A stretch of DNA of 64,000 bases, from contig CM034233.1 in the NCBI GenBank assembly GCA_019916065.1, positions 41,828,862 to 41,892,861 on the forward strand, read 5' to 3'. This document shows, one piece after another, positions 23,140 to 63,956 of the stretch. The DNA comes from Vitellaria paradoxa. Its lineage: Eukaryota; Streptophyta; Magnoliopsida; Ericales; Sapotaceae. The notes beneath the pieces are model-generated. The model was given only the letters and a program-made list of their open reading frames with translations. It ran no database searches and was not told the DNA's origin. The position numbers and the translations under genes are program-made. Positions within the stretch are counted from its first letter, which is position 1. Each line of letters begins with the position of its first letter.

Positions 23140-23790
23140 TTAATTTATCCTCGAGCTATTCCTTCTTCCCCACCACTTCTTTCTCACCTTGTCACCAGCC
23201 CCTTCTTCACTTCCAAGCTTGTGCAGAATTACCTTCGTCTCCCGTAGTCTTACCCCGTAATCCTTCTTCCATGCTTCAAACATCTGTTTCAATCTCCGAA
23301 GTTCACGATCTGGGTTCAGACTTGCCTCAACCTGACCTGACTTTACCTCCACCAAGAACTTAGCATCATCCCCGAATACTTGACTCCTCTGTTCAAATTC
23401 TTCAGCCAACCGACTTAAAACACTAAGACCTGCACTCATTGGTCTCATTCCGTTGTTCTCGGGACCCTTGAAATTGCTTCCAGTTTCCCAACTGTCATCA
23501 TTTAGATTAACTGATGCATCAGAATTTCTCTCAGAATCATCAACAGCCAGGCTTGTCTTCGCAATGGAAAGGCTGGATTGGAGTGATCTCATTTGTTTCT
23601 GCCAGACTTCTTCCATGGACTTCATTTTCAACTCGTATTCAGACCACCGGTTCTCATACTGTTGGAGCCGTTGGTGGAGGATGTCATTCTCCTCTTCTTT
23701 CTCCCTTAAGGCAGCCTCAGCTTTAAGAACTCTGCGTTGTAGCTCAACAAGGAATGATGATTTCACCACCACTTCATCTGACTCATTTCC
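23140..23790 (-). CDS. Class VIII myosin, last coding exon (coiled coil and tail)
   Basis: The C-terminal 216 codons of a plant class VIII myosin, an actin motor of cell-wall junctions, plasmodesmata and endocytic sites as known for the family. The segment ELQRRVLKAEAALREKEEEN, then LHQRLQQYENRW, forms the coiled coil. The tail has PMSAGLSVLSRLAEEFEQRS, QVFGDDAKFLVEVKSGQ and PDRELRRLKQMFEAWKKDYG, and ends KKWWGRRNSSRIN before TAA at 23140-23142. All are hallmarks of myosin VIII tails. The acceptor is TCATGCAG|GGAAATGAG at 23791/23790. The upstream ATG in the intron (23796) is not the start. It joins in phase 0 to the exon ending at 59494. It shows no stops or frameshifts and is the only clearly intact host coding sequence. 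Confidence 0.95.
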   Translation of the reverse strand, partial: GNESDEVVVKSSFLVELQRRVLKAEAALREKEEENDILHQRLQQYENRWSEYELKMKSMEEVWQKQMRSLQSSLSIAKTSLAVDDSERNSDASVNLNDDSWETGSNFKGPENNGMRPMSAGLSVLSRLAEEFEQRSQVFGDDAKFLVEVKSGQVEASLNPDRELRRLKQMFEAWKKDYGVRLRETKVILHKLGSEEGAGDKVRKKWWGRRNSSRIN

Positions 23791-24124
23791 CTGCATGACT
23801 CAATGTCATCTCATATGCATTAGACAAAGGAAACACAAGAAGAAACAAAGCAACACAACAGTGAAAACTGTAGCCATTCATGACTGCATAATATCATCCA
23901 CTAAATAAATAGCAAAATATAATGGAATGTATGTGACCAAGAAAAGAATAATAAGGTAGATGTATGGGAAAATGAGAAAAGAAAGAATTAAGAATGACAG
24001 GATTCCTAATATGGTAGAAATAACACTAACTAAATTTAAATTAAGGGAAAATCGAGTAAAAGTGGCTTGGTCATCTACAACACAGATAATAGATGTAACA
24101 TTTAGAAGTGATAGAATCCAAATC

Positions 24125-24217
24125 TAGGCTCTAAATAGATCTAATTGGCGTCAACAAATCCATATAGCCGACCCTATGTAGTGGGAAAAGGCTTGGTTTG
24201 GTTTGGTTTGGTTTGGT
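24125..24217 (+). mobile_element. RTE-type LINE 3' tip, 93 bp
   Basis: It carries only the last 93 bp of an RTE element (ATCTAATTGGCGTC, ATATAGCCGACCC, TGTAGTGGGAAAAGG) with a (TTTGG)n tail instead of poly(A). It is flanked by the perfect 13-bp duplication TAGAATCCAAATC at 24112-24124 and 24218-24230. The same 3' end occurs in the longer copy at 46253-46775. Confidence 0.85.
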
Positions 24218-24230
24218 TAGAATCCAAATC

Positions 24231-24600
24231 ATAATTAATGTGAGAGGACAAGTGGAACAAAACTAATATAGGTGAAAATAATTAGAAAAGACATAAACAC
24301 AATGTAATTTAGTGAAAGAAAAGGCACTTAACCAAGCAGAATGGAGAAAAGAATATCCATGTTGCCGATTCCATTTAGCTTAGAAAATGCAAAATTGAGT
24401 TCAGTATCATAACTAATGTGAGAAGACAAACTAACGTGAGAGGACAAGTCGAACAAGACCAATATGGGTAAACATAATAAGAAAAAACGTGACAAATTTA
24501 ATAGAAGAAATGGCAATTAGCCAAGCAAAATGGAGAAAAATATCTATGTTGCCGATTCCATTTAGTTTGGAAAACATTAAATTGAGTTGAGTTGAGTTAC
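24231..24600. repeat. Tandem duplication, about 185-bp unit
   Basis: Two units share AATGTGAGAGGACAAGT, CAAGCARAATGGAGAAAA and ATGTTGCCGATTCCATTTAG. Each ends in a TTGAGTT run. The end GCCGATTCCATTTAG with a short TTGAG tail looks like another RTE-type 3' end, so the units may be duplicated LINE remnants. Confidence 0.6.
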
Positions 24601-25102
24601 AAAGACAGAAAATATAATTCATGTTTCTCATGTAATTGGTTTTGATCAATTAATCCATGCAAGTGGAAATGCAATTGTACAGATAATACATTTTATCCTG
24701 TTTAATATATTATTCTAGCTCTGCTTTTTACTTACCTCACCTCATAACTTATTCACCAAACACGAGAAACAATTCTACAGATTGCAGATATATACTCTCC
24801 TGGCTTATTCAATGATAATAAAAACAGCATGGCGACTCCTGAGGCTAATGGAACAGATGCAATAATTCTCATGCTTCATTTAAAAAAAATACATTTGAAG
24901 CATAGAGAAAAAGAATAATACTCCCTTCAGCTGAGGTAACAGAAAAGGGAGGCCTGTATAACTAAAAAAACATTTCAATAGTCTCCATTACACCAAAGTT
25001 GGTTTATGGTGTAGTGAGAAGAGAACGAAGGAAGAAAAACAGCCATCCTTCATGACTTCTTTGGTTCTTCCCTATGGCATCTTACTTCAATAATAGAAAT
25101 GC
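24601..25102. other. Unoccupied intron sequence
   Basis: AT-rich intron sequence between the RTE-like repeats and copia-C. No feature recognised. Confidence 0.6.
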
Positions 25103-25259
25103 TAGAGGATATTGTAAATATAGAGGACTAGGGCTAGTTTATTCTCTTTCCTAGAATAGGAGATTAGATTATGATTTTATTTCCTATCTTGTAAATGCTA
25201 TTGTGAATATATATGCATGTGTTGAGACCCAAAAGGTGTTAAGCCATTCTATTCATCAT
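25103..25259 (+). repeat. 5' LTR of copia-C, left part (rest at 32529-32547)
   Basis: It matches 47492-47644 up to ATTCTATTCATC. The missing end (TATCTATTTCTTTGACA) lies at 32531-32547, on the far side of copia-A. Confidence 0.75.
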
Positions 25260-25529
25260 TGAAGAAAAGAATAATTTCTCTCTTACTATTACAAGGCCAA
25301 TATGGCAGAATTTATATACAATCCCTAGTCCTCTGTTTAGAAAAGTTGTACCATAAAAGGTAGTAATTGAAGGCATTGGTTACCTTAATTACAGCCACTA
25401 ATTACCCTATTTACGGCTGCTATAATTACCTTAATTACAGCCTAAATTAGAGCCTAATTCTCTGTCTATTTTCTAACAGTTACAATAATTAAATTCCCTA
25501 AATCTGCAACGCAATCTCAGTTTTCAACA
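25260..25529 (-). repeat. 3' LTR of copia-A
   Basis: On the minus strand it starts TGTTGAAAACTG and ends TTCTTTTCTTCA. The purine tract on its internal side is the complement of CTCCCCCTCAAGCTGGC (25530-25546). Confidence 0.88.
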
Positions 25530-25536
25530 CTCCCCC

Positions 25537-28500
25537 TCAAGCTGGCTTGAAAATATTTTCCATAGTCAGCTTGCCAATTAAGTAGTTGAACTGCCCCTTG
25601 TACAATCCTTTTGTTAGAACATCTGCAATCTGCTCAGCAGTAGGTATATAGGTCATGCTGATTACTCCAATTTTCTCTTTGATGAAATGCTTGTCGACTT
25701 CCACGTGTTTAGTTCTGTCATGAAGAACCGGGTTGTGTGCAATTGCAATTGCTGCCTTGTTATCACAATACACTTTCAGTGGTAAAGTGTTTTGAACTCT
25801 TAGGTCTTCTAGTAACCTCTTGATCCACAAAATTTCACAAATTCCATTAGCAACTGATCTAAATTCCGCTTCAGCGCTACACCTTGTGACCACACTTTGT
25901 TTTTTACTCCGCCAGGTAACCAAGTTCCCTCCAACAAATGTGCAGTAGCCGGAGGTAGATTTCCGATCAATGATGTAACCAGTCAAATCTGCATCTGTGT
26001 AACTGTTCTATATTCACCATGTCCTCGGGTTTAGCATGTTGAAGCTTCTGATTGGGTTCAGTTGGAGTTTCAGCCGATCTACATCCAAGTAAACCTGTTT
26101 CACTAAGCAAATCAAGTGTGTATTTGCGTTGAGTGACAAATATACCTTCCTTGGACCTTGCAAACTCCATACCAAGGAAGTATTTTAAAGCTCCTAGGTC
26201 TTTTATCTCGAAATCTTTGGCAAGGCCCTTCTTCAATCTTCCAAACTCGCCAATATCATCTCCTATCAAAATAATGTCAGCCACGTAAACAATCAAAATA
26301 GCAACTTTACCTTCTCTTGAGTGTTTATAAAACATAGTGTGACATGCTTGACTTTGACAGTAGCCATGACTTTTAACAACCTTTTCAAAGCGTTCAAACC
26401 ACGCTCTTGGAGATTGTTTAAGACCATTTTTTTTTTTTAATTTACAAACTTTGTCCTCTCCAAACTTCTTTTCAAATCCTGGAGGCAAACTCATATACAC
26501 TTCTTCCTCAAGATCTCCATTCAAAAAAGCATTTTTTACATCCAATTGATATAAGGGCCAACCATAATTAATAGCTAAGGACAGAAGTACTCGAATTGAA
26601 TTCATCTTTGCGACTGGAGCAAACGTTTCTTGGTAGTCAATTCCAAGAGTTTGTGTAAACTCCTTTGCCATAAGTCTTGCCTTATTCCTTTCTATAGTTC
26701 CATCAGCTTTACATTTAACTGTAGACACCCATTTGCAACCAACGGTCTTCTTTCCTTCCGATAGTCTCACCAATTCCCAAGTTCCATTTTTTCCCAGAGC
26801 ATTCATCTCTTCCATATCTGCTAGTTTCCAATTCGGGTTATCCAGTGCCTCTTTAATAGTTCTCGGAACAAATAGGTTAGACACATTTGAAATAAAAGCT
26901 GTATAACTATTGGAAAGTCTATCATAAGATAGATATTTTGCAATGGGATGTTGGGTACATTTTCGTACACCTTTTCTAATGGCTATAGGGAGATAATAAT
27001 AAGTGGGTTTATCAATTGGTGGAAGTGAAGATGAAGAAAGGTTTGGATTAAGACTAGAGTTACTTGAATTACTTGGACCCTCTTCCAGGGATTCTGATTG
27101 ACTTTGTGATAGAACAGTTGGCAAATCTTTATTCTTGTGATGAGTTTTCCTCGAGTATAAACCAAGCACTCAGGTTCAGGAACATTTTGTTCCTTATGTA
27201 GTGTTTCTCCCCCTACTTGTGAGTCATCTAAGTTTGGTAAACTTAGATTAGGATGTCCTTGATTCTTCATATTTTTATCATCCTATTGTTGTTTTTGTTT
27301 ATCAACATCTAAAGGGGAAGATGGAAAATAAGGTTTGGTAAGGGATCCAAAGTTGTTTTCCAAAAAATTTCTTCATTCTCAATCTCCCCTTGAAGACAAT
27401 TTTTGGAAAAATAGGATTGATTTTCCACAAAGGTGACATCCATACTCACAAATTTTTTTTTTGTTTGAGATTGTAACATTTGTATCCCTTTTTGTTTGAA
27501 GCATAGCCAATGAAAGCACAATTTTCAACTCTAAGATCTAGTTTATATCGAAAAATACTTGGTATATGAACATAAGCAATGCATTCGAATATTTTCAATG
27601 GCAAATCTAAAGTAATCCTACATCTCTGGGAAAGGTTTTTTAGAAGTAATCTAGGGGTGTCACATATTGTAAAATACGAGTAAGCATTCGATTTATTAAG
27701 TACGAAGCTGCCAAAACTGCATCTCCCCATAAATATTTTGGAATGTGCATTGAAAGCATTATGGCACTAGCCACCTCAAGTAGAAGCTTGTTTTTTCTTT
27801 TAGCAATACTATTTTGCTGAGGAGTGTCACGACAGGTGGATTGATGTAAAATGCCTTTTTCTTGAAAAAAATTTCCTAGATATTTATTAAAATACTCTTT
27901 CCCATTATCCGAGTGAAACAAACAAATTTTTGATCCAAATTGATTTTCAACCATTTTGTGAAAAATTTGAAACACATTTTTAACTTCAGATTTGTCATTC
28001 ATCAAATACACCCAACAAAGACGGGTATGATCATCTACAAAAGCAACAAACCATTTTTTTCCAGTCACAATAGTGACCGTAGAAGGATCCCACACATCAT
28101 TGTGAATCAAATAGAATGGCTTAGAAGTACGGTATGTTTTTGTCAAATAAGCAGCTCTTTGGCTTTTAGATAGAAAACAACTTTCACAATGAAAGGAATA
28201 ACAATCCAAAGTTTTGAACAAATCAAGAAATAGATATTTTAAATATGGAAAACTAGGATGTCCTAGTCTACGATGCCCAAGCATTATTTCGTCACGAACT
28301 GAGATTGAACTAACACTACCACTATAGCCTTGAGCATTTTTATTCTCGGAAAAATAGTCATCAAAGTAGTAAAGAGCATTGACCATTCTAGCACTGCCAA
28401 TCATCCTCCTCGAGTTCTAGTCCTAAAATTCACAATGAGAGTCAAAGAAAATAACACGACAATTAGAGTCCTTGGAGATTTTACTGACAGATAACAGATT

Positions 28501-29419
28501 ACAGGTCAATTTTGGAACATGAAGGACAGATTTAAGTGTTATATTTTTTGAGAGTTTAATTTGACCTTTTTCTGCAATAGGTGTAAAGCTACCATTAGCA
28601 ATCCTAATTCTTTCTGTATTAGACAAACATGAATATTTATGGAATAAATTGGAAAAAGAAGTCATGTGGTCGGATGCCCCTGAATCAATGATCCAAGGGG
28701 CAAATTTTTGGCTACAAGATAGAGCATTGGAATTGCTACCTGTTTGTGCAAGAGCACTACTAGGAGTACTGGATAGTGAATTGGACCTTAGCAACTTTAG
28801 TAGATAATCCATCTGCTCCTTAGAGAAATGACTTGTCTCGACTTCATTTGCATGGGAGGTTTCTTGGGTTGGCTTGTCAGTAGGTTTGTTGCTCTTCTAG
28901 TTTGCAGGCTTCCCATGAATCTTCCAACAGTTGTCTCAGGTATGATGTGGCTTATTGCAAACATCACACCATATCTGAGACCTTTCATTTTGCTTTCGTG
29001 GATTAAAGACATTGTTTGCAGCTGAATCTGATGCAATACGGGCTGAATTCTCCACTGGGGCAACAATCCCTTTTTTCTCCAAGCATCACGTTCCTTTGGA
29101 TTTCTTCCCTTCTAACTTCAGCAAAGACTTCACCAATAGCTAGTAATGGTTGACAACCAATGATTCTTCTCCTGACCTCATCGAATTCTATGTTCAAACC
29201 AGCCAAGAACTTGTAAATTCGATGATCTTCGACCAGCTTTATGTTATGATTACAGTCCTTCGGTGATTTCCACTCGTAATTATTGAATAAATCCAAATCT
29301 TGCCACAATCTCTTCAAGGAATTGAAGTATTTGGTGACACTATCCTCTCCTTGACGGATCTCACCAAGCTTTATTGTTAATTTATAAATTTGGGACTGAT
29401 TTTCCAAGTCTGAATACAT
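25537..29419 (-). pseudogene. copia-A gag-pol, broken (main part)
   Basis: Read right to left, gag comes first (YSDLENQSQIYKL, LAGLNIEFDEVRRRI), then a zinc-knuckle remnant (IWCDVCNKPHH), protease (WIIDSGASDHMT near 28700), integrase (GHRRLGHPSFPYLK, HNDVWDPSTV, FHSDNGKEYFN, with ERKN changed to AKRKN) at 28310-27640, RT (26880-25990) and RNase H (25986-25537). The RT box reads VYVAD instead of YVDD, so a catalytic aspartate is lost. Frames change repeatedly (near 29050, 28800, 27700, 27500, 27250 and 25980). The element cannot make its own enzymes. Confidence 0.88.
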
Positions 29420-29446
29420 TTGGCTGACATTATCCCAGAGTTCTTT

Positions 29447-31872
29447 TTTTTTTTTTTGAAAAGGATAAATAAAAATTTTATTTCAGAAGACCTGAATAAG
29501 CATCAGGAAGATGCTTACTGTACAATAGAGCTGTACATATTAGCCCAAAACCAAATATCAGCTCAAATTATCAAGGAAGTTTTAGAAAGAAAAAAGGTTT
29601 AGATCACTTCCTTCCCCTGCCCACCCATATAGAGAACTGAAGAATACACTCTTAATCTTCAAAACAGTCCTCGAGTCTTCTTAAAAAATCCTCCTGTTAC
29701 GCTCTTTCCAAATAATCCAAAAGAGGCAAAAAGGAACCAAGTTCCAAATCTTCTTTGAACTCTCTTCCAAAGATTGCCCCCACCAAGTCAGCAGAAAGCT
29801 CCCAAGATCTACTGGGAAGCTAAATTGAACTCCAAAACAAATAAAAATCAAGCTCCATAATTCTGACAACCAGTTGCAGTGAAGAAAAAAATGATCAATG
29901 GTTTCCTCTTGACTTAGATACAGCGGGCACCGCAGCGCTGCAGGTTGTCTAATGTCAAAATCCTACCATTGATGGTACACCAAAAGAAGAAAATAATTCG
30001 CGTAGGTACTCCAGTTTTCCATATTTTTAGCCAAGGAAAAACCTCATTACTATTGTCACCTTGTAGGAAGGAAGGACTTCACCGAGAATTCCTTGTTCCT
30101 TGATTGCTTCTAAATGACTGCATCAGCTACCATAGACAACTTGATAGTACGTAATAATTCTAGTAAAGACAATAAACTGTCAAACTCCCAGTCGTTAACA
30201 TTTCTTCGCAGCTTCACAGTCCAACAAGTTTGAGTGCCAACCCCATTGCAGTAATCCGAGACTCTTAGCTTCTTTATTAGTTGCAATTGCAAAGATTTCA
30301 GGAAATATGTCTAAAAGACATCCAAAACCAGACCAATTTTTCTTCCAAAAGTATATTCTATCACCTTTCCCAACTTGCCATATGATACATCTACTAAAAA
30401 TCTACCATAAGCCTCTTATACCATGCCATAAAGCTGTGTCGTAAGGACTATACACAGAAGCTGAGGTCCACTCTCCAAGACATTCACCATATTTGGTTGC
30501 AATCATCTTTTTCCAGAGCCTGTTTTCCTCCTGGGCATATCTCCAAAGCCATTTTCCTAATAAGGCCTCATTGTTTAATTTCAATTGCTGAGGACCTACT
30601 CCACCTGCCTTCAAAAGTTTACAAACTTCCTTCCACTTCACAAGACTAAATTTGTGAACCTTTTCACTTCTACCCCATAGAAAATCCCTTTGCAACCTTT
30701 CCAATTCCTCAATTACAGAGATTGGAACTGTGAATAAAGAGAGGAAATAAGTGGGTAGGCTAGTAAGAACACTCTTAATAAGTGTAATCCTAGCCCCAGC
30801 CGATAGATATTTGAGCTTCCACCCATCCAACCTACTCCTGCATCTCTCCAAAACTGGACCCCAAATATGTTTTGATTTGTAGGGAGCTCCCAAAGGCAAA
30901 CCAAGGTAAGTAGTAGGAAAGGAACCAACCTTACAACCCATAATATTTGCAAATCCACTCAAATCATCCAGAACACCAACAGCCATGACCTCAGACTTTT
31001 GGAGTTTTATCTTTAACCGCTTCGAAACCCAACAAAGTGCAGCGTAGATGTCCTAATTGTAGCATGTTAGCCCCACAAAAAATGATAGAATCATCGGCAA
31101 ATAACAGATGGGATATGCTGAGAGGAGATCTATCATTACCGACAACAAAACCTTTAATAAAGCTAGCATTTTCTATATTATGCAACATTCTACTAAGGAC
31201 TTCCATTATTAAGATGAAAAGAAAAGGAGAGAGGGGATCTCCTTGCCTTAAACCTCGGGAAGAAGCAAAAAAGCCTTCGGGAGAACCATTAATCAAGACT
31301 GAAAATTTGACAATTGAAATGCACCAATGAATCCATTGACACCATTTGTTACCAAAACCCATTTTACCTAACAAATAAATCAAAAAGTTCTAATTTACAT
31401 GGTCAAAGGCTTTCTCTAAATCCAGTTTGCAAACAATACCTGTCTCCTTCTTCTTAATCTTTGAATCCAAAATCTCATTAGTTATCAAAACAACATCTAA
31501 AATCTGCCTGCCGCTCACGAATGCATTCTGAGAAGCTGAAATTGGAGGGTCCAAAACTAATTTAAGTCTATTAGCAAGTACTTTAGAAAGAATTTTATAG
31601 AAAGTCCCAACCAGGCTAATGGGCCTAAAATCCTTAACTTCTACTGCACTAGGTTTCTTTGGAACAAGAGCAATGAATATAGAGTTCATACTCCTAACAA
31701 ATCTGCCATGTTGATGGAATTCTGCAAAAAACTGTAATAAATCCTCTTTGAAAATATTCCAGCAGCTTTGAAAAAATGCAATGGTCCACCCGTCAGGCCC
31801 TGGTGCTTGTTCTCCATTAAGACCCTTAAGAGCTTGGTATATTTCTTCTTTAGTGAATTGATTCTCTAAGCT
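29447..31872 (-). mobile_element. L1-type LINE inside copia-A, 5'-truncated
   Basis: A 2,426-bp minus-strand insert whose poly(A) shows as a T run at 29447-29457. It is flanked by the 13-bp duplication CCCAGAGTTCTTT at 29434-29446 and 31873-31885. It splits copia-A gag at KELW. The endonuclease and ORF1 are missing. It is a different copy from the LINE at 19940 but of the same general class. Confidence 0.9.
29680..31872 (-). pseudogene. LINE reverse transcriptase and zf-RVT, broken
   Basis: On the minus strand from 31872: [20 protein letters not shown] (RT motif 0/1), [32 protein letters not shown] (31400), then [15 protein letters not shown] and [10 protein letters not shown] with the catalytic ADD pair (31120). 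The thumb and connector (TYLGLPLGAP, RDFLWGRSEK, LGKWLWRYAQEE) run to 30402. Remains of the zf-RVT region run to about 29680 (FCLFWIIWKERNRRIF). Stops at about 31388 and 30988 split the RT into three frames. The RT active site is present but the protein is broken and truncated. Confidence 0.88.
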
Positions 31873-31885
31873 CCCAGAGTTCTTT

Positions 31886-32194
31886 AGCTGTTGGATAACA
31901 TAAGTAATTGGAGCTGATGTCCTCCATGGAATTGACCAACCAAGTCATTACTATAGAGTTTTCAGCATCCCATGTCATAAAGGATGGATCTTCCTTCACC
32001 GGTTCCTTCTTTTCTCCAGTCAGGTACCCAATTTTTCCATGCCCCCGAATGTACATTCAAACAGATTGGGACCATCGTAAAAAATTATCACCATTCAATT
32101 TGATGTTGGTGATTTGGACAGAATAAGAATAAGAATGAGAGTTGGGAGGAAGGGTTTCTGGATTTTTTTGGAGGGCTAGGGCTTCGGATGGCAT
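31886..32194 (-). pseudogene. copia-A gag N-terminus
   Basis: The ATG at 32194 opens MPSEALALQKNPET, then ITNIKLNGDNFLRWSQSV, the usual copia gag start. An in-frame TGA near 32058 follows SQSV. After it come [26 protein letters not shown] and TAKELWE, up to the LINE insertion. The sequence continues across the LINE at 29433 with LWDNVSQM, giving an uninterrupted match to gag. Confidence 0.88.
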
Positions 32195-32247
32195 TGTGAA
32201 TGGCGGTTGAAGGAATTCTAGGGTTTTTGTCAGAGAATAAGTCCCTG

Positions 32248-32259
32248 CTCTGATACCAT
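32248..32259 (-). promoter_or_regulatory. Primer-binding site of copia-A (tRNA-Met type)
   Basis: TGGTATCAGAGC on the minus strand, directly after the 5' LTR. It is complementary to the 3' end of initiator tRNA-Met, as in most plant copia elements. Confidence 0.9.
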
Positions 32260-32528
32260 GAAGAAAAGAATAATTTCTCTCTTACTATTACAAGGCCAAT
32301 ATGGTAGAATTTATATACAATCCCTAGTCATCTGTTTAGGAAAGTTGTACCATAAAAGGCAGTAATTGAAGGCATTGATTACCTTAATTACAGCCACTAA
32401 TTACCCTATTTACAACTGTTATAATTACCTTAATTACAGCATAAATTAGAGCCTAATTCTCTGTCTATTTTCTAACAGTTACAATAATTAAATTCCCTAA
32501 ATCTGCAACACAATTTCAGTTTTCAATA
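32260..32528 (-). repeat. 5' LTR of copia-A
   Basis: It matches 25260-25529 with about 12 substitutions. Its first dinucleotide on the minus strand reads TA instead of TG. Confidence 0.88.
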
Positions 32529-32548
32529 ATTATCTATTTCTTTGACAT

Positions 32549-32560
32549 TGTATCAGAGTA
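32549..32560 (+). promoter_or_regulatory. Primer-binding site of copia-C, split by copia-B
   Basis: TGTATCAGAGTA follows the 5' LTR end TTTGACA and resembles TGGTATCAGAGC. The last five bases (GAGTA, 32556-32560) are the target duplication of copia-B and recur at 42035-42039. Confidence 0.75.
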
Positions 32561-32781
32561 TGAAATTAGACGAAGTATTTATTCTGTATTTCTTGAATAA
32601 TTCTATACATGCTATACCTCCCTATTTAGAGTACAATAGAATATCTATAGAAGGAAACAAACCCCTAGAAATCTACTCCTATTATCTCCCATACAGAATA
32701 TAAAAAAGAAATGTTTCCGAATCTAATTCTACCTCACAACGATAATTCAATTACAATTCCTCAATCATTGGGATTTCAGCA
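32561..32781 (-). repeat. 3' LTR of copia-B
   Basis: It matches 41836-42034 (ATTCTATRCAT, ATAGAAGGAAACAAACCC, TTCAATTACAAT, ATTGGGATTTC). It has about 24 extra bp (near 32610-32635) missing from the other LTR. Confidence 0.85.
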
Positions 32782-34976: not shown

Positions 34977-34981
34977 GAAAG

Positions 34982-35270
34982 TGTCGGATAGTTAGGAAAA
35001 TCAAACCTAGAAATTAGTTCCTGATTTCTAGGAAATTAGTTTCTGATTTCTAGAGATTTGATAATGATTTTATTGTATTAAATAAGGAGATAGCAAAAAT
35101 CTCCATAATTAGTTTCATTCCATAGTTATCCCTTAAATTAAGGGATTGATTGTTGCTAGAAATATGGGATTCAATGGTAGGATTGTTACCATGTTTCTCT
35201 ATATATTCTAGCTTCTTTCTCATCAGAAAATAAGTAGAAGATGATTATTTCTTTTTCTCCAAAACCTTCA
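34982..35270 (+). repeat. 5' LTR of copia-D
   Basis: It starts TGTCGGATAG and ends AAACCTTCA directly before the primer-binding site. It contains TCTCTATATATTC (TATA-like) near 35203. A tandem piece GAAATTAGTTYCTGATTTCTAG occurs twice near 35011-35053 but only once in the other LTR. Confidence 0.93.
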
Positions 35271-51682: not shown

Positions 51683-51686
51683 GATA

Positions 51687-54900: not shown

Positions 54901-56080
54901 CTCCTTGTCCTTGTACGGGACAAGAAGATCCATCAGCTAGAACAACATGATGAGAAATGGGATTTAAATGAGAGAAGAATGAAGAGTTACCAAAGATATG
55001 AGAGCTTGCACCAGAATCAATCACCCAGAAAGGTGGCACGGAAGCAATACAAGTAACATTACTTGAATTGGCTAATGTAGCAGTGGAAGTAAATGGGTGA
55101 GACGTCCGAAGGGCTTGTAATAATTCACTGAGTTGAGTACTAAGGTCAGTGGTAGTAGTTGAAGTCTCTGACTAGGTGGAAGCCACAGGAGTAGGATTAT
55201 TGAACACGTGATGAATTTGATATGGCTTACCATACTTAGCCCAACAATATGGCTCAGTGTGATTGGTCCGTCCACAATTAGAACACTTACAATCTCCTCG
55301 CCCTTGAGAAGACCGACCACCACGAGCTGAAACTCGTGATGTGCAACTACGTCCTCGCATACTACCGCGAAAGACTCTTTGAGCAGTGTTATTTGAGATC
55401 AAAGCAGAGATTTCTGAAGTAGTGGTCTAAACCAATGTATGACGCCCTAAAGATGATCTCAACATGTGAGAATAGGCATTAGCAGCAGTAGGCAAGGTTT
55501 CACTGGCAAGAATTTAATCTTTAAAACCACATAAATCTGAATCAAACTCAGAGAGAAGAGAGGCAATCATAAAATCTTCCCAGTGTCGCTTTTGTTGCTC
55601 AAGGTTTGTAGTAAAGGGCCTATGTTGTAACAACTGATCCCATAGATTTTTTAGAATACTATAATATCCTGAAAGAGGACGACCTGCTTGTTTAATTGTA
55701 AAAATCTACTCATATAATTCAAAAACTCTTTAAACATTACTTTGCTGGGAGAATGAGTCAGTAAGGGAATCCCAAATTTTCTTTGAAAAATCACAGAATT
55801 CTACGGTTGTAGCAATATGAGATTCCAAACAGTGCCATAGCCACCCCATAACAATAGAGTCTTCACTAAGCCAATCATCATATGCACTATCATCAGACTT
55901 AAGTGGAAGATCAATAAGAAGTTTTAGTTTCTTCTTCCCACGAAGAAACACCTTCACCGCATGGGCCCAGGCCAAATAATTTAACCCATTCAATTTCTTA
56001 GAAGTAATTGATCGAGAGATATCTTCATCTTCCATTAATATGGATTTCGGTTCAGTAGCAATAGCTTTCCATTCAACCAT
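51974..56080 (-). pseudogene. copia-F gag-pol, nearly one frame, with stops
   Basis: Right to left: gag from ATG 56080 (SITSKKLNGLNYLAWAHAVK, SEDSIVMGWLWHCLES), then a zinc knuckle CSNCGRTNHTEPYC (55290) and protease WVIDSGASSHIFGNS (55025). GAG-pre-integrase and the start of integrase are in 54609-54274 in another frame (CEVCQFGKHHRSFF, HTDIWGPSRI, IFVDDYSGMTW). The rest of integrase is in 54232-53924 (SVAECKHRHLLDVA, the E kept but the ERKN motif altered). The linker is 53893-53520. RT has VYVDDIIISGDN (52820, intact) and RNase H runs 52675-51980 (GYCTFVGNSKKQQVVARSSA). Retrofit-like wording. It has several stops and a frame change around 54270-54730. Confidence 0.88.
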
Positions 56081-56089
56081 AGGTTAAGA

Positions 56090-56850
56090 GGAAACCAAAA
56101 TCAACAAAACAAAAAAAGAAATACCAATAGTCACAGGCCAGCGAAGATGAACAAGTCAGCAAAAGAGACTAAAACAGCAACCAAGGATCAACAAGCATCA
56201 CAGAGGCATCAAAGAAAGCATCAGTCGGCACCGATAGCAAGGATCACCATATCATCAATCGACTACCACAGATCAAAGGGCAGTAGCAGCAGAGATCGAA
56301 GAACAGACCAAAGAAAAGATGGAGAACAACAACATGATCATCAAACAAGAGTTACCAGATTACCAGATCATCAATTGGCTCCCACAGATCAACGAACAGC
56401 AGCAGAGAACGAAGAACAGATCGAAAAACAGAGACAAAACTGAAAAACAGCAACAGATCATCAAGGTTCATTGACAGATCATCAACCCAGAGGTTACCGG
56501 CAACATAGAGGACTCCCTTCCATCAGGCGATCGCCGTTGTGTGTCACCGATGAGACGCCGAAAGGCCACGCGCCTACACACACCGAAAGGCCACGCGCCT
56601 ACACACGCCGAACAGAAGAGGGCGCGTGAGACTTGAGCGCTGGTGGCGAACTACGCGTGGGGATGCGTCGAACCTTCGCCAGCGACGGGTTCAGGTGGGT
56701 CACGATCGTCGGTGGACGACGACTCTTCAATGGTGGTCAGCATCCGACTCCGATGGCCAGAAAGTCGCCGACGGCGAGATTCCTTCTCCGGCACGTCTAT
56801 GCTCACTGTTTTTCTTTTTTTTTCTTTTTTTTTTTCTTGAAATCAGATTT
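56090..56850 (-). other. Leader of copia-F
   Basis: The region between 5' LTR and gag is rich in AGATCATCAA and GATCGAAGAACAGA repeats (plus-strand view 56160-56480) and GC-richer near 56520-56790. No coding homology. A long poly-T/C tract on the plus strand lies at 56811-56836. Confidence 0.6.
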
Positions 56851-56853
56851 GAT

Positions 56854-56865
56854 GCACTGATGCCA
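56854..56865 (-). promoter_or_regulatory. Primer-binding site of copia-F
   Basis: On the minus strand TGGCATCAGTGC directly follows the LTR end CTCAACT. It differs from TGGTATCAGAGC at two positions. Confidence 0.75.
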
Positions 56866-57060
56866 AGTTGAGAGAAATAAAGAAAAAAGGAAGAATTGAA
56901 TTGTCTCCTCTCTTCTCCCTTGACTCTTATTTATAATCAAAATCTTACAACAAATAAGGAAAAACTCAGAAAAGGAAATACAGCAATCCAAACTTGTAAG
57001 GAAATGAAATAATAACAAATAACTTGTAAGGAAACAAGAATAAAATCCTATATCCTAACA
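56866..57060 (-). repeat. 5' LTR of copia-F
   Basis: It matches 51687-51881 with about 8 substitutions. On the minus strand it starts TGTTAGGATATAGG. Confidence 0.9.
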
Positions 57061-57065
57061 GGATA

Positions 57066-59118
57066 TAAATGGATTTATACAGTGAAATACCGAGCATATG
57101 GGTCACTAGGGAGGTAAAAGACAAGGTTAGTAGCCAAGGGATATACTTAAACATATGGTGTGGACTATCAGGAGACATTTGCTCCCGTGCCAAAATGAAT
57201 ACTGTCAAAGTTTTGCCATCCTTGGGAGTGAATTATGGCTGAGGGTTGCAACCTATGAAGCACGGATACGGATACGGAAGCAAGTACGGGTACGGGTACG
57301 GGTACAGATATAGGATACGGCAATTTTCAAAAAATGAGGATACAGGTACAGCAAAGATACGGAAAAAAATAAAATAAAATATATATTTTATTTAAAATAA
57401 TTTTGAAGATAGCATCTATATACTACTAAACATTTTATAAATAACAATTATATAACTTTAAAAATACTATTCAATCCATAAATTAACATCATTCATATTC
57501 AAAACTACCAACATCATTCATACACAAAACACAAATATAACAAAAAGTATCAAATACAATTTCATACATCCCAAAATAAAAATAGTTTTTTCATTTCCTA
57601 AATTTTAGTTAGATCAAACTTCAATCATATCAATCTATTTTAGTTAATTATAGTTTGGCTTCTACTAAAATTTTATCATATCAATTGTACCCCCAAAAAG
57701 GTTTAAAATATTACATTTGGACTCCCGCCGTATCCTGGAAGTATCCTTCCCGTATCCTAGCCGTATCTTATACAAAATTTAAAATAAAAAATTAGGATAC
57801 GCCATACGTATCCGGCCGTATCCTAGCCGTATCCGTATCCTCGAAATTTTCGATACGAGTGCAGCGCCTAATTTGAAGTATCTGTGCTTCATAGGTTGCA
57901 ACAATATAATGTGAAAAATGCATTCTTGTATGGATATCTCGAAGAAGAAATTTATATGGAAATTCCACCTAGATATGGAAATAACATGGCTACTAATCAA
58001 GTGTGTAGACTGAAGAAAGCTTTATACGGGCTCAAACAGTCTCCAAGGGCGTGATTTGGAAGATTCACAAAAGTTATGACAGGCATGGGATACAAATAAA
58101 GTCAAAGGGATCATACGTTATTTGTCGAGCAATCAAGTTAAGGGAGAGTGACAGCTCTTCTAGTATATGTAGATGATATAATTGTAACTGGGAGATGATG
58201 AGAAGAAGAGAGAATCATTAAGAACATGTTTGGCCAAAGAAGTCGAGATCAAAGAATTAAGAAGACTAAAGTACGTCTTAGGAATTGAAGTGCACACTCA
58301 AGGCATGGAATTTTTATCTCTCAATAGAAGTACATCACGGATCTACTGAAAGAGACAAGAAAATTGGCATGTAAACAAGCAAGCACAACAATAGATCCCA
58401 ATCACAAACTTGGAGAAGCTGAGGAAGATGATTCAAAGGACAAGGAGATGTATTAATGCCTAGCAGGTAGACTCGTTTATCTTTCCCACACAAGGTCAGA
58501 TATAGCTTATGCAATCAGTGTGATCAGTTAGTTTATGCACAATCCCAAGGAAGTTCATATGCAAGCTGCAAAACGAGTACTACAGTATCTCAAAGGGACT
58601 CCAGGTAAGGGGATTCTATTCAAAAAAGGCACGAGGCTGATAATTGAAGCATATTAGATGCAGAATATGCCGGATCAGTGACTGACAGAAGATCAACTTC
58701 TAGTTACTGCACATTTTTTGGTGAGAATCTTGTGACATGAAAGAATAAGAAACAAAATGTGATAGCAAAATCAAGTGCTGAAGCAGAGTTTAGAGCAATG
58801 GCTTAGGGCACTTGTGAACTATTGTGGCTAAAAATCATCTAGGAGATTTGAAGGTTCGATGGGTTAGCCCTATGAGACTATATTGTGATAATAAATCTAC
58901 AATTAGCATAGTACATAATCCTATGCAGCATGATCAAACAAAACATATTGAAGTAGACCGGCACTTCATCATAGAGAAGTTAGACAGTGGCTTGATTTGT
59001 ACGCCTTACATGTCTACTGATCAACAACTTACAATTGTACTTATCAAAAGCTTGAGCAATACGAAGTTTCAAACAAATGTATTCAAGTTTGGAATAGAAA
59101 ATATCTATTCACCAACCT
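57066..59118 (+). pseudogene. copia-E RT and RNase H, broken
   Basis: The RT frame resumes after copia-F at KWIYTVKYRAYGSLG, is interrupted by the MITE between LQ and [11 protein letters not shown], and continues with [13 protein letters not shown] and VYVDDIIVTG (58160, box intact). RNase H shows LYCDNKSTISIVHNP (58880) and KHIEVDRHFIIEKL, ending near 59118. Stops are frequent (near 58050, 58100, 58195, 58455, 58530 and 58655). Non-functional. Confidence 0.85.
57253..57894. mobile_element. hAT-like MITE with GTATCCG subterminal repeats
   Basis: Terminal inverted repeats CTATGAAGCACGGATAC and (inverted) CTATGAAGCACAGATAC. Perfect 8-bp duplication GTTGCAAC at 57245-57252 and 57895-57902, the size typical of hAT transposons. 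Both ends are packed with GGATACGG / CCGTATCC words, while the middle is AT-rich without an ORF. Excision restores the copia-E RT frame ([10 protein letters not shown]). Confidence 0.85.
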
Positions 59119-59127
59119 GAGGGAGAG

Positions 59128-59345
59128 TGTAAGAAAATATTGTAATAATTGTATTCCAATAATTAAGGGATTTAAATTTCTATAATTAAGAGATTTAAAT
59201 TTCTATAATTATGGGATCTGATTAGGAATTGATTAGGATTTAATTTGACAGTTTTCCTATTTTGCAGTTAGGGTATATAAATAGCATTGTGGTGATCAAT
59301 GAAAATACAGAAAATTTTTCTTCAATCTGTCTTCTTTCTTCCACA
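59128..59345 (+). repeat. 3' LTR of copia-E
   Basis: It follows the purine tract CCTGAGGGAGAG and starts TGTAAGAAAATATTG. It contains the same tandem GATTTAAATTTCTATAATTA pair as the 5' LTR and ends TTCTTCCACA. Confidence 0.83.
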
Positions 59346-59493
59346 GCAGGTAAATGGTAAAAATAAATGTAAGGTAAAGTCAATTTCTAGCAATCTTGCT
59401 GAACAAATTTCAGGCATTACCATAAACAAGCATTGAATAAAAGAATTTAACCGTTATAGAAAGAGTAACAGCCAGGGCAGAGTCGAAGAGTAC

Positions 59494-59561
59494 CTTTTTG
59501 CCTCCAAATTGTAATATTCCAATGTCTCTTGAGCATCTTCTGACCAACCAGCCGCGAATAA
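59494..59561 (-). CDS. Class VIII myosin, penultimate exon (IQ motif end)
   Basis: A 68-nt exon encoding IRGWLVRRCSRDIGILQFGG plus KK, the segment that follows the last IQ residues in class VIII myosins. The acceptor is ATTTTGCAG|TTATT at 59562/59561 and the donor is AAAAAG|GTACT at 59494/59493. The first codon (V) is completed by the G that ends the exon at 63810, so the IQ motif IQS-VIRGWLVRR is split by the intron. At the 3' side it joins in phase 0 to GNESDEV of the last exon. Size and phase agree exactly (2 + 66 nt). It is isolated between two blocks of retrotransposons and would be easy to miss in gene prediction. Confidence 0.93.
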
Positions 59562-59744
59562 CTGCAAAATAGCTGAATCAGGAACATGAAAAATACAAAT
59601 AGTGTAGTAATGTAAATGACCTCATTCAGCAAATGTCAGACTGGGTCTACCCTGTAGTAATGGATTTCACTAATGGTTTCAAAATTGATCCCAAATCATA
59701 CCAATTATACATTTTTTAAATTACATCTTGACAATTCTAAACCG

Positions 59745-59832
59745 TATAAAACATTATTTTTTGTATTGGAGAGCATATCTAATTGGTTTGCATCAAGTTC
59801 TATTTATAATGAATTATGAAACTAAAATTGGA
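59745..59832. repeat. ~85-bp direct repeat, copy 1
   Basis: AAAACATTATTTTTTGTATT through TATAATGAATTATGAAACTAAA. It matches 62957-63040 with scattered differences. The pair brackets copia-G. Confidence 0.75.
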
Positions 59833-59909
59833 TATACGAAGGTTTGACTCCCAATATGACTATTAGAAGATATTAGTATTATTAGCGAATATTGAGTTTT
59901 CCTTTCTTG

Positions 59910-60049
59910 TGTTGACAGCCATAATTGGTTGTATTTCCTTTTCCCTTAAATTTATTTCCTTTTATGATTGTAACATTTAATTATAAATAAGAATGCTTGG
60001 AGAGGGGAGAAAACATACTCCTCAATTTCTTTGCTTTGATATTCTAACA
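59910..60049 (+). repeat. 5' LTR of copia-G
   Basis: A 140-bp LTR starting TGTTGACAGCC and ending TATTCTAACA, directly before the primer-binding site. Confidence 0.75.
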
Positions 60050-60061
60050 TGGTATCAGAGC
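60050..60061 (+). promoter_or_regulatory. Primer-binding site of copia-G (tRNA-Met type)
   Basis: TGGTATCAGAGC, the standard plant copia primer site, directly after the LTR end. Confidence 0.9.
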
Positions 60062-60719
60062 AGAGAAAATAAAAAAAAAAAGGAACAGATACATAAAAAG
60101 AAGAGAGAGAAAATATCCAAATCGCTGCTGGTTCTGCCGCCGGTGAACTTTCCGACGACCAAAGTCACCGGCCGACGGTACCTTGGAGCTCGCCAGTGAC
60201 CGGCGAACAAACCCTAGAAGGCTGGTTGCCTAACGAAGCCACGGTTGATCTCACGCGCCACCTCTTGTCACTGCGTCAGCCCTCACGTGCCAAGATATCT
60301 CCGGCGCGTGCAGGCGCATGACCCACCGGCCGACTACCGGCTTCTTCTACGGCGGTCGCCTAGCTTACGCGGTTGTGATGGTTACTTGCTTGCTCAGTAT
60401 TATCCTCACCTGATGGCCCTATTTGTTTCATCTAAGGACTGGTCCTTCGCCCACTGCTCTTCTCGCTGACTGGTCCTTCGCCCACTACTCTTCCTGCTGG
60501 TCCTTTATGATTCGTTGGCTCCTGTGATGTTTCCCTTTAATTGGTGAATAATTGCCTTGTTCTTTTGCTAGTTGGTGGATTACTTGATCTTGCTGTTGGT
60601 TCGCTGCTTTGTTGATTCCCTTTAATTAGTGGAGGTTGATTCCTGGTTTTAGCCGTGTGCCTTTGCTGGTCCTCATTAATTGGTTGGTGTTGATTCTTTA
60701 AAACCCTAGTCCTATTATG

Positions 60720-61905
60720 GCAAAATCAGAAGATCAAATCTTCAATCAAACTGTTTTTCTCAGGGCTGATGATGTTCCTTGCTCTATTACACCCAAGAAA
60801 TTAAATGGAGACAATTATTTGGGTTAGGCACATGCAGTTAAACCTTTCTCCGAGGTAAGAACAAACTGAAATATCTTACTGATGAAGCACCTCCCTCAAC
60901 TGAGCCTACATATGATGTTTGAATGAGTAAAGATGCAATCGTAATGGGCCTTCTGTAGCATAGTTTAGAGGACTCTGTTGCCACCACAGTTGAATTTTGT
61001 GATTCCTCTAAACGGATATGGGAGTGCCTTGCTAAATCCTATTCTCAAAAGAGCAATGTTTCTCAGGTTTATGAGTTATACGAGCAGATGTTCTTAGCCA
61101 AACAAGGTGACAAATCTCTATCTGAATATTATAGTCATTTAAAAAGTTTATGGGAACAATTGTTGCCATATCGTCCCTTTAGTACAGACTTACTGCAGCA
61201 GAAGAAATACTGGGAAGAGTTTATGATAGCTAACTTTTTATCTGGCCTCAATCCTGACCTCTGAGGATTCAAGGATCAAATTTTAGCAAGCAAGACATTG
61301 CCCACTGCAACTAGTGCTTACTCCCGTATCCAGCGATCTTCATTGGGTAATCGTTCCTCCAACCCTGATAATACAACTTTATCTGCAGATTCTTCTGCTC
61401 TAGTTAGCCAGCATAATCGTGGGGGGTCTTCTCGTGGCTCCCGTGGTGGACGGAACAATCGTGGTGGTTCTAGAGGTGGAGGACGATCTTCCGGAAATAA
61501 GGGTGAACGCAAGTGTACTTTTTGTGATGGAATAAACCATAGAGAACCCTATTATTGGAAAAAGTATGATAAACCAAAGCAAGCACATCATGTCAATGAT
61601 CATGGTTCTACACAGCCTTCAGTGCCTCCAACTAGTACTCCCACGTCTGATTCTCAAGAGACATATACTCTGAGTTCCTCTCAGCTCCAAGAGCTCATCC
61701 AGTCGTTACGTGTTTCTACTCCCTCTACCTCCACTGCCATTTTGGCAAATTCAGGTAACCCTACTCTTGTGACCTCTACCTCTTCCCCCTAGATTATTAA
61801 TTCTGGAACCAATTCACATATGTCTGGTAATTCTTCTTTATTCTCTAATCTTCGTCCTCTTAATCATAATATAGTACTAGCCGATGGATCATCTCGTCGG
61901 GAGTA
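60720..61905 (+). pseudogene. copia-G gag and protease start, broken
   Basis: Gag opens MAKSEDQIFNQTVFLRADD, CSITPKKLNGDNYLG, then a stop replaces the usual W before AHAV. Further stops and frame changes occur near 60850, 60920, 60955 and 61262. The last part (61298-61792) is open and encodes a Ser/Gly/Arg-rich stretch, a zinc-knuckle remnant CTFCDGINHREPYYW (the last Cys replaced by Tyr) and a Pro/Ser/Thr-rich tail. The protease motif follows as INSGTNSHMSGNSS, with D of DSG changed to N. The sequence ends abruptly near 61905 ([10 protein letters not shown]). Confidence 0.83.
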
Positions 61906-61980
61906 GAATAACCAGGGGGTTGATCCATATAGACCTCTTCTTGTAGTTGACCATGAAGGAAGGCATTTTTAATGTCAGAC
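61905..61980 (-). pseudogene. copia RT fragment in opposite orientation
   Basis: The minus strand reads [20 protein letters not shown] then PPGY, the RT block after motif A in copia proteins. The equivalent in copia-F lies at 53010-53080. It joins the copia-G protease head to head at about 61905. Confidence 0.8.
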
Positions 61981-62956
61981 CTTTCCAATCATCTCGATAA
62001 TTGGACCAGAATAAAAAATCCAAATAGATTTTGAGCTTGACGGAGCAATGTTGCATGGAGGTAGAAAGGCCCGTGAGTTGTATATTGCTGTTGATTGGTC
62101 ATGTCATATAGGCTCAAGTCAGATATCCAATTAATTAATTCCCTCAATTTCTCTAATTGAAGATACAAAGAATATTGAGATATTGATAGAATATTGACTT
62201 CCAACACTGCTCCATAAGATGAGCGTGGATGAATCTGCACTGCTCATTTTAAATACGGAGAATCTTCAAACTCGAGAGCAATATTTGTTGGACTGCAAAA
62301 TTAAACCTTGCTTCAAAACTTGAACTGGAATATTAGGAACAAAACCAGATAAATCAATTTGATTTATCGAAACATGTATTTAAGAGATAACAAAAACAAA
62401 GGAGCATGAGCATTGGCAAAAAGACTTCAACAAACAAGAGTGATGCAGACAAATAATGCAAAATATTTGATTTGGCAACATGGATAAGCCAACTCAACTT
62501 ATTGTGATAGTCAAACACAAGACTAAAGTTGTCAAGCACAAAGGTGGCCAAGTATCAAATCTCTATCAATAAGAAATTGGGTTTTGCTGCTAAAGCACCA
62601 AACAGGGATATATCATTAAACTCAACCATCCCCCCCCCCCAAAAAAAAAAAAAACAAAACTTTAGACAAATAGAAACAATGTTTGTGGAAAAAAAAAAAA
62701 TGCAAATATAGGCAACAAAATATGCAGCGAATCTGCTACAGACTACAAAGTGATGGAAAACAAGCTGCAAAACTGCAGCAAACTGCCTGGAAACTACTGC
62801 AAATTTCAAGCAAAACAACTGTGAAAACATTGCTGCAAAAGACAGCTGATAACCTACAATGCAAACTGCAGTAATTATACGAGATCAACGACTTCCTTAT
62901 TGCCCACCAGCAAAGCGGAAATCAGTGGAGAAATTCAATATAGGCTTTGACATGCA
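61981..62956. other. Intron sequence of unknown origin
   Basis: No recognised coding family. It includes a C11/A14 homopolymer tract at 62630-62654 and a stretch rich in CTGCAAA words at 62720-62875. It may be part of the rearranged copia-G block because it lies inside the 85-bp direct repeats. Confidence 0.5.
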
Positions 62957-63040
62957 AAGAAACATTATTTTCTGTATTGGAGAACATACCCAATTGGTTT
63001 GCCTCAGCTTCAATTTATAATGAACAATTAAACTAAATAT
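62957..63040. repeat. ~85-bp direct repeat, copy 2
   Basis: AGAAACATTATTTTCTGTAT through TATAATGAACAATTAAACTAAA, the partner of 59745-59832. Confidence 0.75.
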
Positions 63041-63334
63041 GGTCAAAACACAAACTATTCTTCAAAACACTTAATGTCATTAATTGCATTTTAACCACTG
63101 TTTAGGTATTTTCACACAAGCAAGTTGGTGGTTTGTGCTTCAAATCCTAGCTTAAAATATGATCACAACCTTTCCAAAACCAGAACATTTTTGAGCTTTT
63201 TGTGAACTCATTCATCAAGCATATTACTAAGCACTAGGACTTACTTTATACAGCTCTAGAACGGATTTGAGATTCAATTTTGTAAAATATAAGAAAGATA
63301 GCTATTATGTTACATTAACGATTTTTAATAGTTA

Positions 63335-63350
63335 ATTACCCAAAAAAAAA
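63335..63350 (+). mobile_element. Near-zero-length SINE insertion (16 bp)
   Basis: The insert is ATTACCCAAAAAAAAA only. It is flanked by a perfect 18-bp direct repeat AACGATTTTTAATAGTTA (63317-63334 and 63351-63368). TTACCC-A(n) is the 3' end of the SINE at 19108 (GAGTTACCCCA-A(n)). This looks like target-primed insertion with almost complete 5' truncation. Confidence 0.7.
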
Positions 63351-63368
63351 AACGATTTTTAATAGTTA

Positions 63369-63809
63369 CTTTTAAAGTAGTGGAGCCACCACTTCCTAAA
63401 GCAGTAAAGCCAAATACAAATGAAGGATTTCAAACCATTCAAATTTGTGTTGAAATCTGTATCTAAAATTTGAGCAATTCTCCTTAAATAAATAGCATCA
63501 CATCCCTAAATTTCAAATTCACAAGTACAAGTGCAACCTTAGAGTGCATTTGGAACGTGGATTTATGAAAGAAAAACAAAAGCAAAGCACAAGGTACAAA
63601 AACAGAATAAAGTTCCCAAAAAAAAAACTTTAAATTTATTTCATTTTTTTATTTGGATTAGAAAAATGAACATATATTTTTAAATGATTGTATTTTTATT
63701 TGTTTAATCATAAAAAAGAATATATATAAGTATTTCATTTTCCTAGCATTTTCTTTTTCGTTGACAAATCATTAATCCAGTTTAAAGATATTAAGCAAAG
63801 ATAGATTAC
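63369..63809. other. AT-rich intron sequence
   Basis: Nothing recognised up to the donor site of the IQ exon at 63809. Confidence 0.6.
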
Positions 63810-63956
63810 CTGACTGTATTAGAATTGATGCATTACAAACATCTATGAATCTTCTTCTGTCAATCCTGCCTTTCATTCGCTTTTGTATGACCACAGCGGC
63901 TCTCTGACTCTGTAGGAGGAATGCATATTCCTTTCTAGTTCTCCCTCCCCGTATAA
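63810..63956 (-). CDS. Class VIII myosin, IQ-motif exon
   Basis: A 147-nt exon encoding the neck, where calmodulin-like light chains bind. It reads RTRKEYAFLLQSQRAAVVIQ, then KRMKGRIDRRRF and NASILIQS. The motif VIQKRMKGRIDRRR fits IQxxxRGxxxR, and ILIQS starts the next IQ motif. The acceptor is TTCTTACAG|TTATA at 63957/63956 and the donor is CAGTCAG|GTAATC at 63810/63809. Two nt of a split codon open it and one nt closes it (2 + 144 + 1). The motor domain exons lie beyond the right edge of the window. Confidence 0.93.

What the first reader, a model, noticed from the sequence alone, without database searches (positions are those of the whole stretch)
23140..63956. Class VIII myosin gene spread over more than 40 kb by a 35.7-kb intron
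Three intact exons on the minus strand join in exact phase (2+144+1, 2+66, 651 nt) with GT/AG borders. They encode the IQ neck, coiled coil and tail of a class VIII myosin. The intron between the last two is 35,703 bp, of which about 34.2 kb is nested retrotransposons. If the gene is expressed, the spliceosome must join a 68-nt exon across this distance. If not, this is a recent gene loss. The clean exons suggest it is still under selection.
Basis: partly seen in the sequence, partly recalled or inferred. Interest (0 to 1): 0.8.

Follow-up and report, generated by a model that had tools for sequence, protein, structure and literature searches.

The report
Plant myosin gene swollen by retrotransposons
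An intact plant motor-protein gene (class VIII myosin) has been stretched to about 105 kb because retrotransposons piled up in its introns, one of which reached 35.7 kb; this is a clear but ordinary example of something already known in flowering plants.

Summary
The three exons join in phase with GT/AG borders around a 35,703-bp intron. In the plant's own assembly the gene continues beyond the window. My model has 23 exons, 22 of 22 introns GT-AG, no internal stop and 1,171 aa over 104,878 bp, with class VIII domains and the WW terminus. A duplicate on contig C5 keeps all 22 intron positions and phases in 30.7 kb; there the same intron is 1,310 bp. About 28.4 kb of the giant intron lies within paired LTRs: one element holds a LINE-type piece, two hold another LTR element. 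A partly identified 5.6-kb stretch would make 34.0 kb.

Gene loss is disfavoured: dN/dS is 0.135, and this copy shows no excess of changes at invariant sites (20 against 32 of 786 in its duplicate, p 0.13). Expression is untested. Introns of this size and content are in print for flowering plants: grape, 3-100 kb; Sapria, over 100 kb; Cornus officinalis, 13,567 over 12 kb. A good new example of a known process.

The parts
63810..63956 (-). exon 21 of 23 (147 nt), IQ neck
   Evidence: IQ family
59562..63809 (-). intron 21, 4,248 bp (354 bp in the C5 duplicate); holds a copia-type gag fragment at 60959-61261 (+)
59494..59561 (-). exon 22 of 23 (68 nt)
23791..59493 (-). intron 22, 35,703 bp, phase 0, GT-AG (1,310 bp in the C5 duplicate)
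23140..23790 (-). exon 23 of 23 (651 nt with TAA): tail, ends with the WW motif
47666..59305 (+). LTR element D (SH3_retrovirus domain at 50847-51344; copia type by inspection of its frames), interrupted by C; 5-bp TSD TACAG; LTR K2P 0.063; exact LTR ends uncertain
51687..57060 (-). LTR element C nested in D; TSD GGATA; LTRs 95.9% identical, K2P 0.042; its one tested frame (51974-52690) had no Pfam hit
42031..47665 (.). degenerate stretch: copia reverse-transcriptase piece at 44904-45164 (+); 46258-46780 recurs at 87-91% identity in intron 11 of this gene and at the C7 locus; the rest unclassified
32560..42030 (-). old LTR element E (gag-pre-integrase piece 40339-40743), interrupted by B; LTR K2P 0.18; no clear TSD
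34982..40026 (+). LTR element B (copia domains) nested in E; TSD GAAAG; LTR K2P 0.019
25260..32525 (-). LTR element A (RVT_2, rve, gag-pre-integrase); TSD ATCAT/ATAAT (4 of 5); LTR K2P 0.043
30402..31944 (-). LINE-type piece inside element A: RVT_1 at 31390-31944; the frame 30402-31052 had no Pfam hit (LINE call by inspection)

Best explanation
This is the 3' end of a complete class VIII myosin gene (annotated as myosin-1 / ATM1 in relatives) of an Ericales-like eudicot. It is one of two similar copies left by an old duplication (inferred from their similarity; no tree built). After that duplication, LTR retrotransposons (copia type where domains could be recognised) and a LINE-type element inserted one after another into introns of this copy, some into each other. 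Intron 22 thereby grew to 35.7 kb and the coding region to 105 kb. Shown: intact full-length frame, splice sites, conserved intron positions, purifying selection, nested elements of different ages. Inferred: that the whole unit is transcribed and the elements are removed by ordinary GT-AG splicing, probably while the intron carries silencing marks handled by IBM2-type factors, as known in Arabidopsis and rice.
For: The 23-exon model has no internal stop and 22 of 22 GT-AG introns, and includes a 14-nt microexon found in 4 of 4 class VIII loci of this genome. Motor, SH3_VIII-1_N and IQ domains are present, and the protein matches Camellia P0122 at 1,025 of 1,173 positions. The C5 duplicate has the same 22 intron positions and phases; most short introns are alike while the longest differ by up to 27-fold. 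NG86: dS 0.533, dN 0.072, ratio 0.135; exons 21-23 give 0.137. At 786 columns invariant in 8 outgroup proteins, this copy alone differs at 20 and C5 alone at 32; the difference is not significant (p 0.126), so it shows no acceleration rather than slower change. LTR divergences are 0.019-0.18, all below the dS of the duplicates; exact 5-bp TSDs were seen for B, C and D, 4 of 5 bases for A, none clear for E. Five further LTR-like direct pairs lie in introns 9, 11, 14 (two) and 17.
Against: No transcript was available. Among the 120 hits listed by each protein search the highest identity was 91% and 89%, so no same-species sequence was seen and expression of this copy is unproven. The C5 duplicate is also intact and could carry much of the function. 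The dN/dS is a pairwise average over the whole time since duplication. If neutral change in exons runs at half the LTR rate, a frame unconstrained since A and C landed would stay free of stops in 23-24% of simulations, about 2% if frameshifts are counted too. On the donor side of intron 22 almost no intron sequence aligns with C5. One paper says introns over 20 kb are seldom seen in angiosperms.
Confidence: 0.88

Rival explanations
1. Recent gene loss: the copy stopped being useful once its introns grew too large, and its exons have not yet decayed.
For: An intact duplicate exists on C5. An LTR-like pair in intron 14 is 99.5% identical and element B has K2P 0.019, so recent insertions could in principle have silenced the gene. 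A frame unconstrained only since B landed would stay stop-free in 29% of simulations at full rate and 53% at half rate.
Against: No stop, no frameshift and no broken splice site over 23 exons. No excess of changes at invariant sites (20 against 32 of 786, p 0.126). Had constraint ended when D (K2P 0.063) or E (0.18) landed, stop-free frames occur in 1.4% and 0% of 2,000 simulations at full rate, 10.2% and 0.2% at half rate.
Confidence: 0.07
2. Assembly artefact: exons 22 and 23 were joined across a false contig merge.
For: Repeat-rich stretches are the classic place for misjoins (general knowledge). On the donor side of intron 22 the alignment to C5 hardly passes the exon.
Against: No N in 134 kb. 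All 23 exons lie in order on one strand. On the acceptor side about 108 bp of intron (23791-23898) aligns with C5. TSDs flank elements A, B, C and D. No raw reads could be examined.
Confidence: 0.03
3. The giant intron causes regular early polyadenylation, so the gene makes mainly a tail-less myosin ending just after exon 22.
For: In rice, genes with heterochromatic introns show premature intronic polyadenylation when OsIBM2 is lost, similar to Arabidopsis ibm2 (PMC7145194, passages read).
Against: Exon 23 is itself under purifying selection (dN/dS 0.111), so the tail is used by at least part of the product. No transcript data here.
Confidence: 0.04

Closest known systems
Class VIII myosins of land plants (myosin-1 / ATM1 type)
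   Same: N-terminal extension in one exon, SH3-like domain, motor, IQ neck, tail ending with WW (criteria PMC3850447 section 7)
   Different: Only the intron lengths were found unusual: 105 kb coding span against 30.7 kb in its own duplicate
TE-expanded introns of grapevine (PMC3058033; parts 1 and 2 of 5 of the text read)
   Same: Large introns with over 80% repeats, LTR elements and LINEs among the dominant types, copia about 6.5 times gypsy; 2,697 introns of 3-100 kb mapped from ESTs
   Different: Another species; there spliced ESTs prove the splicing, here no transcript is at hand
Genes with very long introns in Sapria himalayana (PMC10246380) and Cornus officinalis (PMC12860560), passages read
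   Same: Angiosperm genes with very long introns: 23 Sapria genes with introns over 100 kb; 13,567 C. officinalis introns over 12 kb
   Different: Sapria is an endoparasite and C. officinalis has a 2.85-Gb genome (listing); the present genome is 667 Mb

Membership tests
Class VIII myosin | Myosin motor domain, full length | tested here: met
   PF00063 positions 1-679 of 679, E 9.3e-245
Class VIII myosin | N-terminal SH3-like domain of the VIII type | tested here: met
   PF25369 SH3_VIII-1_N, E 8.3e-27
Class VIII myosin | Three to four IQ motifs | tested here: inconclusive
   The IQ family matches (E 1.2e-11; 2 stretches in the 287-aa part), but motifs were not counted against the paper's alignment
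Class VIII myosin | C-terminal motif with two tryptophans | tested here: met
   The protein ends KKWWGRRNSSRIN; criterion from PMC3850447 section 7
Class VIII myosin | N-terminal extension (MyTH8) encoded by one exon | tested here: met
   Exon 1 is 375 nt / 125 aa and precedes the SH3 domain at 127-171; the MyTH8 motifs were not compared
Class VIII myosin | Coiled-coil regions in the tail | not tested
   No coiled-coil prediction was run
Class VIII subtype B (PMC3850447) | Tail after the last neck intron in a single exon | tested here: met
   Exon 23 codes the last 216 aa without an intron; criterion from a passage; no tree was built
TE-expanded spliceosomal intron | Same intron position in a relative, enlarged by datable TE insertions | tested here: met
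   Same position and phase in C5, 1,310 against 35,703 bp; LTR pairs and TSDs
TE-expanded spliceosomal intron | Spliced transcript across the intron | not testable with these tools
   No RNA data for this species

The most novel reading that the evidence does not exclude
The two duplicates differ mainly in intron load (101 against 27 kb), yet the loaded copy shows no relaxation. Its long, probably late-spliced and silenced introns may have become a regulatory device (slow transcription, or tissue-dependent early 3' ends giving a tail-less motor) that helps keep both copies.
Probability: 0.05. Interest if true: 0.55.

Novelty: new member of a known kind. Interest (0 to 1): 0.22.

Why it matters
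It is a clean within-genome comparison: one intact gene pair, identical intron positions, and a 27-fold difference in one intron built by datable insertions. It indicates that a conserved frame can stay under selection while an intron grows by more than 30 kb, and it gives a test bed for splicing of short exons (68 nt here, 14 nt elsewhere in the gene) in a gene with long introns. It does not change what is known about plant introns.

Tried and rejected
A first model lacked the 14-nt microexon and forced a false junction; inspection of the four class VIII loci corrected it. A first set of LTR divergences (from the BLAST identities, used in the simulation) overstated the ages of B, D and E; the gap-free K2P values replace them, and the simulation was rerun. 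Rfam and tRNA scans of the window found nothing. I looked for the homologous last intron in the second class VIII pair (C7, C2), but no convincing match to the tail exon came up. A genome-wide copy count for the intron's repeats, and a matK search meant to help name the plant, could not be run because the genome server did not answer. The species is therefore given only as Ericales-like, from the best matches to Camellia, Davidia, Actinidia and Diospyros (that Davidia belongs to Cornales is recalled). For these I lowered the main confidence from 0.90 to 0.88 and raised gene loss from 0.06 to 0.07 and assembly error from 0.02 to 0.03.
Full report
What was checked. The three minus-strand exons are present at the stated places: 63956-63810, 59561-59494 and 23790-23140. 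They join in one frame to 287 aa with GT/AG borders. The last intron is 35,703 bp. The joined product matches plant myosins: the top hit is 81% identical over 93% of the query, and an Actinidia rufa protein is 91% identical over 76% of it (196 hits, 120 listed).

The whole gene. The plant's own assembly is held: 667 Mb in 71 contigs, with the window at C1:41828862-41892861. I fetched 70 kb beyond the window and three other class VIII loci; the C1 stretch of 134 kb has no N. Guided by Camellia protein P0122, I built models for this gene and for its nearest duplicate on C5. Both first models had an odd junction where four of five database proteins printed read FLLEK. A 14-nt exon coding FLLEK, with AG before and GT after it, lies in the gap in 4 of 4 class VIII loci. 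Microexons that code part of the myosin motor domain are in print for plants (PMC8831610, passages read). The corrected models have 23 exons each. C1 codes 1,171 aa over 104,878 bp and C5 codes 1,172 aa over 30,733 bp. Both have one stop, at the end, and all 22 introns GT-AG; all 22 intron positions and phases agree.

Class. The C1 protein has PF00063 over its full length, PF25369 SH3_VIII-1_N and IQ, and ends with a WW motif. PMC3850447 gives these among the class VIII features (section 7 read). A tail in a single exon fits its subtype B (passage read). I built no tree, ran no coiled-coil prediction and did not count IQ motifs against that paper.

Intron lengths. Introns total 101,362 bp in C1 and 27,214 bp in C5. 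Most short introns are nearly equal (81/81, 93/92, 150/155, 121/124, 85/84, 136/130). The large gains are in introns 5 (9,122/1,997), 9 (8,403/2,666), 11 (9,086/3,252), 14 (17,715/6,640), 17 (8,459/1,624), 21 (4,248/354) and 22 (35,703/1,310). C5 is the longer copy in seven of 22 introns (4, 6, 7, 12, 16, 19, 20), at most by 956 bp. So the growth is gene-wide and strongest in intron 22. The motor-domain hits were grouped into loci by me; the spans are lower bounds, as 65 of 169 candidates were scored. The motor part of C1 spans 57.9 kb, the three other class VIII loci 30.9, 22.1 and 14.0 kb, and twelve other groups 0.8-13.8 kb, some of them clearly partial.

What fills intron 22. Five LTR pairs were found, with these Kimura distances: A 0.043, B 0.019, C 0.042, D 0.063, E 0.18. 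B, C and D have exact 5-bp target duplications and A has 4 of 5; for E none was clear, and the ends of D are uncertain. B lies in E and C lies in D. A RVT_1 frame of LINE type (type by inspection) lies in A. Pfam domains: A, RVT_2, rve and gag-pre-integrase, with a gag match below its cut-off; B, Pol_BBD, gag-pre-integrase, SH3_retrovirus and RVT_2, with rve below its cut-off; D, SH3_retrovirus in one of three frames tested; E, gag-pre-integrase in one of three; C, none in the one frame tested. The spans cover 28,377 bp. In the 5,635 bp at 42031-47665, one of four frames tested gave RVT_2, and 46258-46780 recurs at 87-91% identity in intron 11 of this gene and at the C7 locus. With that stretch the sum is 34,012 of 35,703 bp. 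Ancestral intron sequence is alignable with C5 for about 108 bp on the acceptor side (23791-23898). On the donor side the alignment ends about five bases into the intron, apart from a weak 16-bp match at 59351-59366. Five more LTR-like pairs lie in introns 9, 11, 14 (two, one 99.5% identical) and 17. All LTR distances in intron 22 are below the synonymous distance of the duplicates (0.533), so the growth is probably later than the duplication; different rates for repeats and exons make this an ordering only.

Selection. Pairwise NG86 gives dS 0.533, dN 0.072, ratio 0.135 for the whole frame; exons 21-23 give 0.137 and exon 23 alone 0.111; exon 1 is looser at 0.363. At 786 columns that are invariant in eight outgroup proteins, C1 alone differs at 20 and C5 alone at 32; for the motor and neck the counts are 8 and 19 of 570, for the last part 6 and 13 of 189. 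None is significant at 0.05 (p 0.126, 0.052, 0.167). The copy with the giant intron thus shows no acceleration. A random-mutation simulation (2,000 runs per row; transitions twice transversions and indels 10% of substitutions, both assumed) asks how often the frame would stay open if constraint had ended when an element landed. At full LTR rate no stop arises in 29% of runs for B, 7% for C, 6% for A, 1.4% for D and 0% for E. At half rate the values are 53, 24, 23, 10 and 0.2%. Requiring no frameshift as well lowers these to 3.7, 0.05, 0.1, 0 and 0% (full) and 17.7, 2.0, 1.9, 0.3 and 0% (half). So loss at or before the D insertion is unlikely, loss at the time of A and C is unlikely if frameshifts are counted, and loss after the youngest insertions cannot be excluded by this argument.

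What is not shown. No transcript of this species was available, and none of the 120 proteins listed by either search was more than 91% or 89% identical. That the intron is spliced is therefore inferred from the intact gene and from what is known elsewhere.

Comparison with the literature. In grape, 2,697 introns of 3-100 kb were identified from mapped ESTs. Over 80% of their content is repeats, with LTR elements and LINEs among the dominant types and copia about 6.5 times gypsy (PMC3058033, parts 1 and 2 of 5 read). Sapria has 23 genes with introns over 100 kb (PMC10246380), and C. officinalis has 13,567 introns over 12 kb (PMC12860560; passages). A paper on pine says that introns as long as its own (15.4% over 20 kb) are seldom found in angiosperms (PMC10082083, passage). 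The present intron is thus in the tail of the known range but not outside it. In rice and Arabidopsis, loss of IBM2 leads to early polyadenylation in genes with silenced introns (PMC7145194, passages); this is the likely setting here, untested.

Verdict. Real, well supported, under selection since the duplication, and ordinary in kind. Interest is low to moderate because of the clean duplicate comparison.

Noticed in passing
L013:9144-9157 (-), L021:7095-7108 (-), L016:5446-5459 (+), L026:5974-5987 (-); converted by hand from the oriented positions: A 14-nt microexon coding FLLEK in the motor domain is kept in all four class VIII loci; a Rhododendron protein in the database (P0132) reads other residues there, as if the microexon had been missed in its annotation.
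   Followed up: partly
Intron 14 of the same gene, outside the window: positions 52796-53002 and 57679-57885 of the oriented C1 stretch: An LTR-like pair 99.5% identical, pointing to a very recent insertion in another intron of this gene.
   Followed up: no
G000 C2:46407209-46409344 (+) and C2:50541047-50543182 (-): Two other myosin head loci with the same hit lengths and E-values on opposite strands about 4 Mb apart: a recent inverted duplication or an assembly duplicate.
   Followed up: no
1-23139: The stretch downstream of the gene is also rich in mobile elements: an integrase match (230-1135), two Transposase_32 matches (2546-3136; 10063-10614, the latter below its cut-off) and a zf-RVT piece (20861-21325); three other frames tested had no hit.
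   Followed up: partly
22384-22574: A tandem repeat of 79-bp units (2.4 copies) about 0.6 kb downstream of the myosin stop codon.
   Followed up: no
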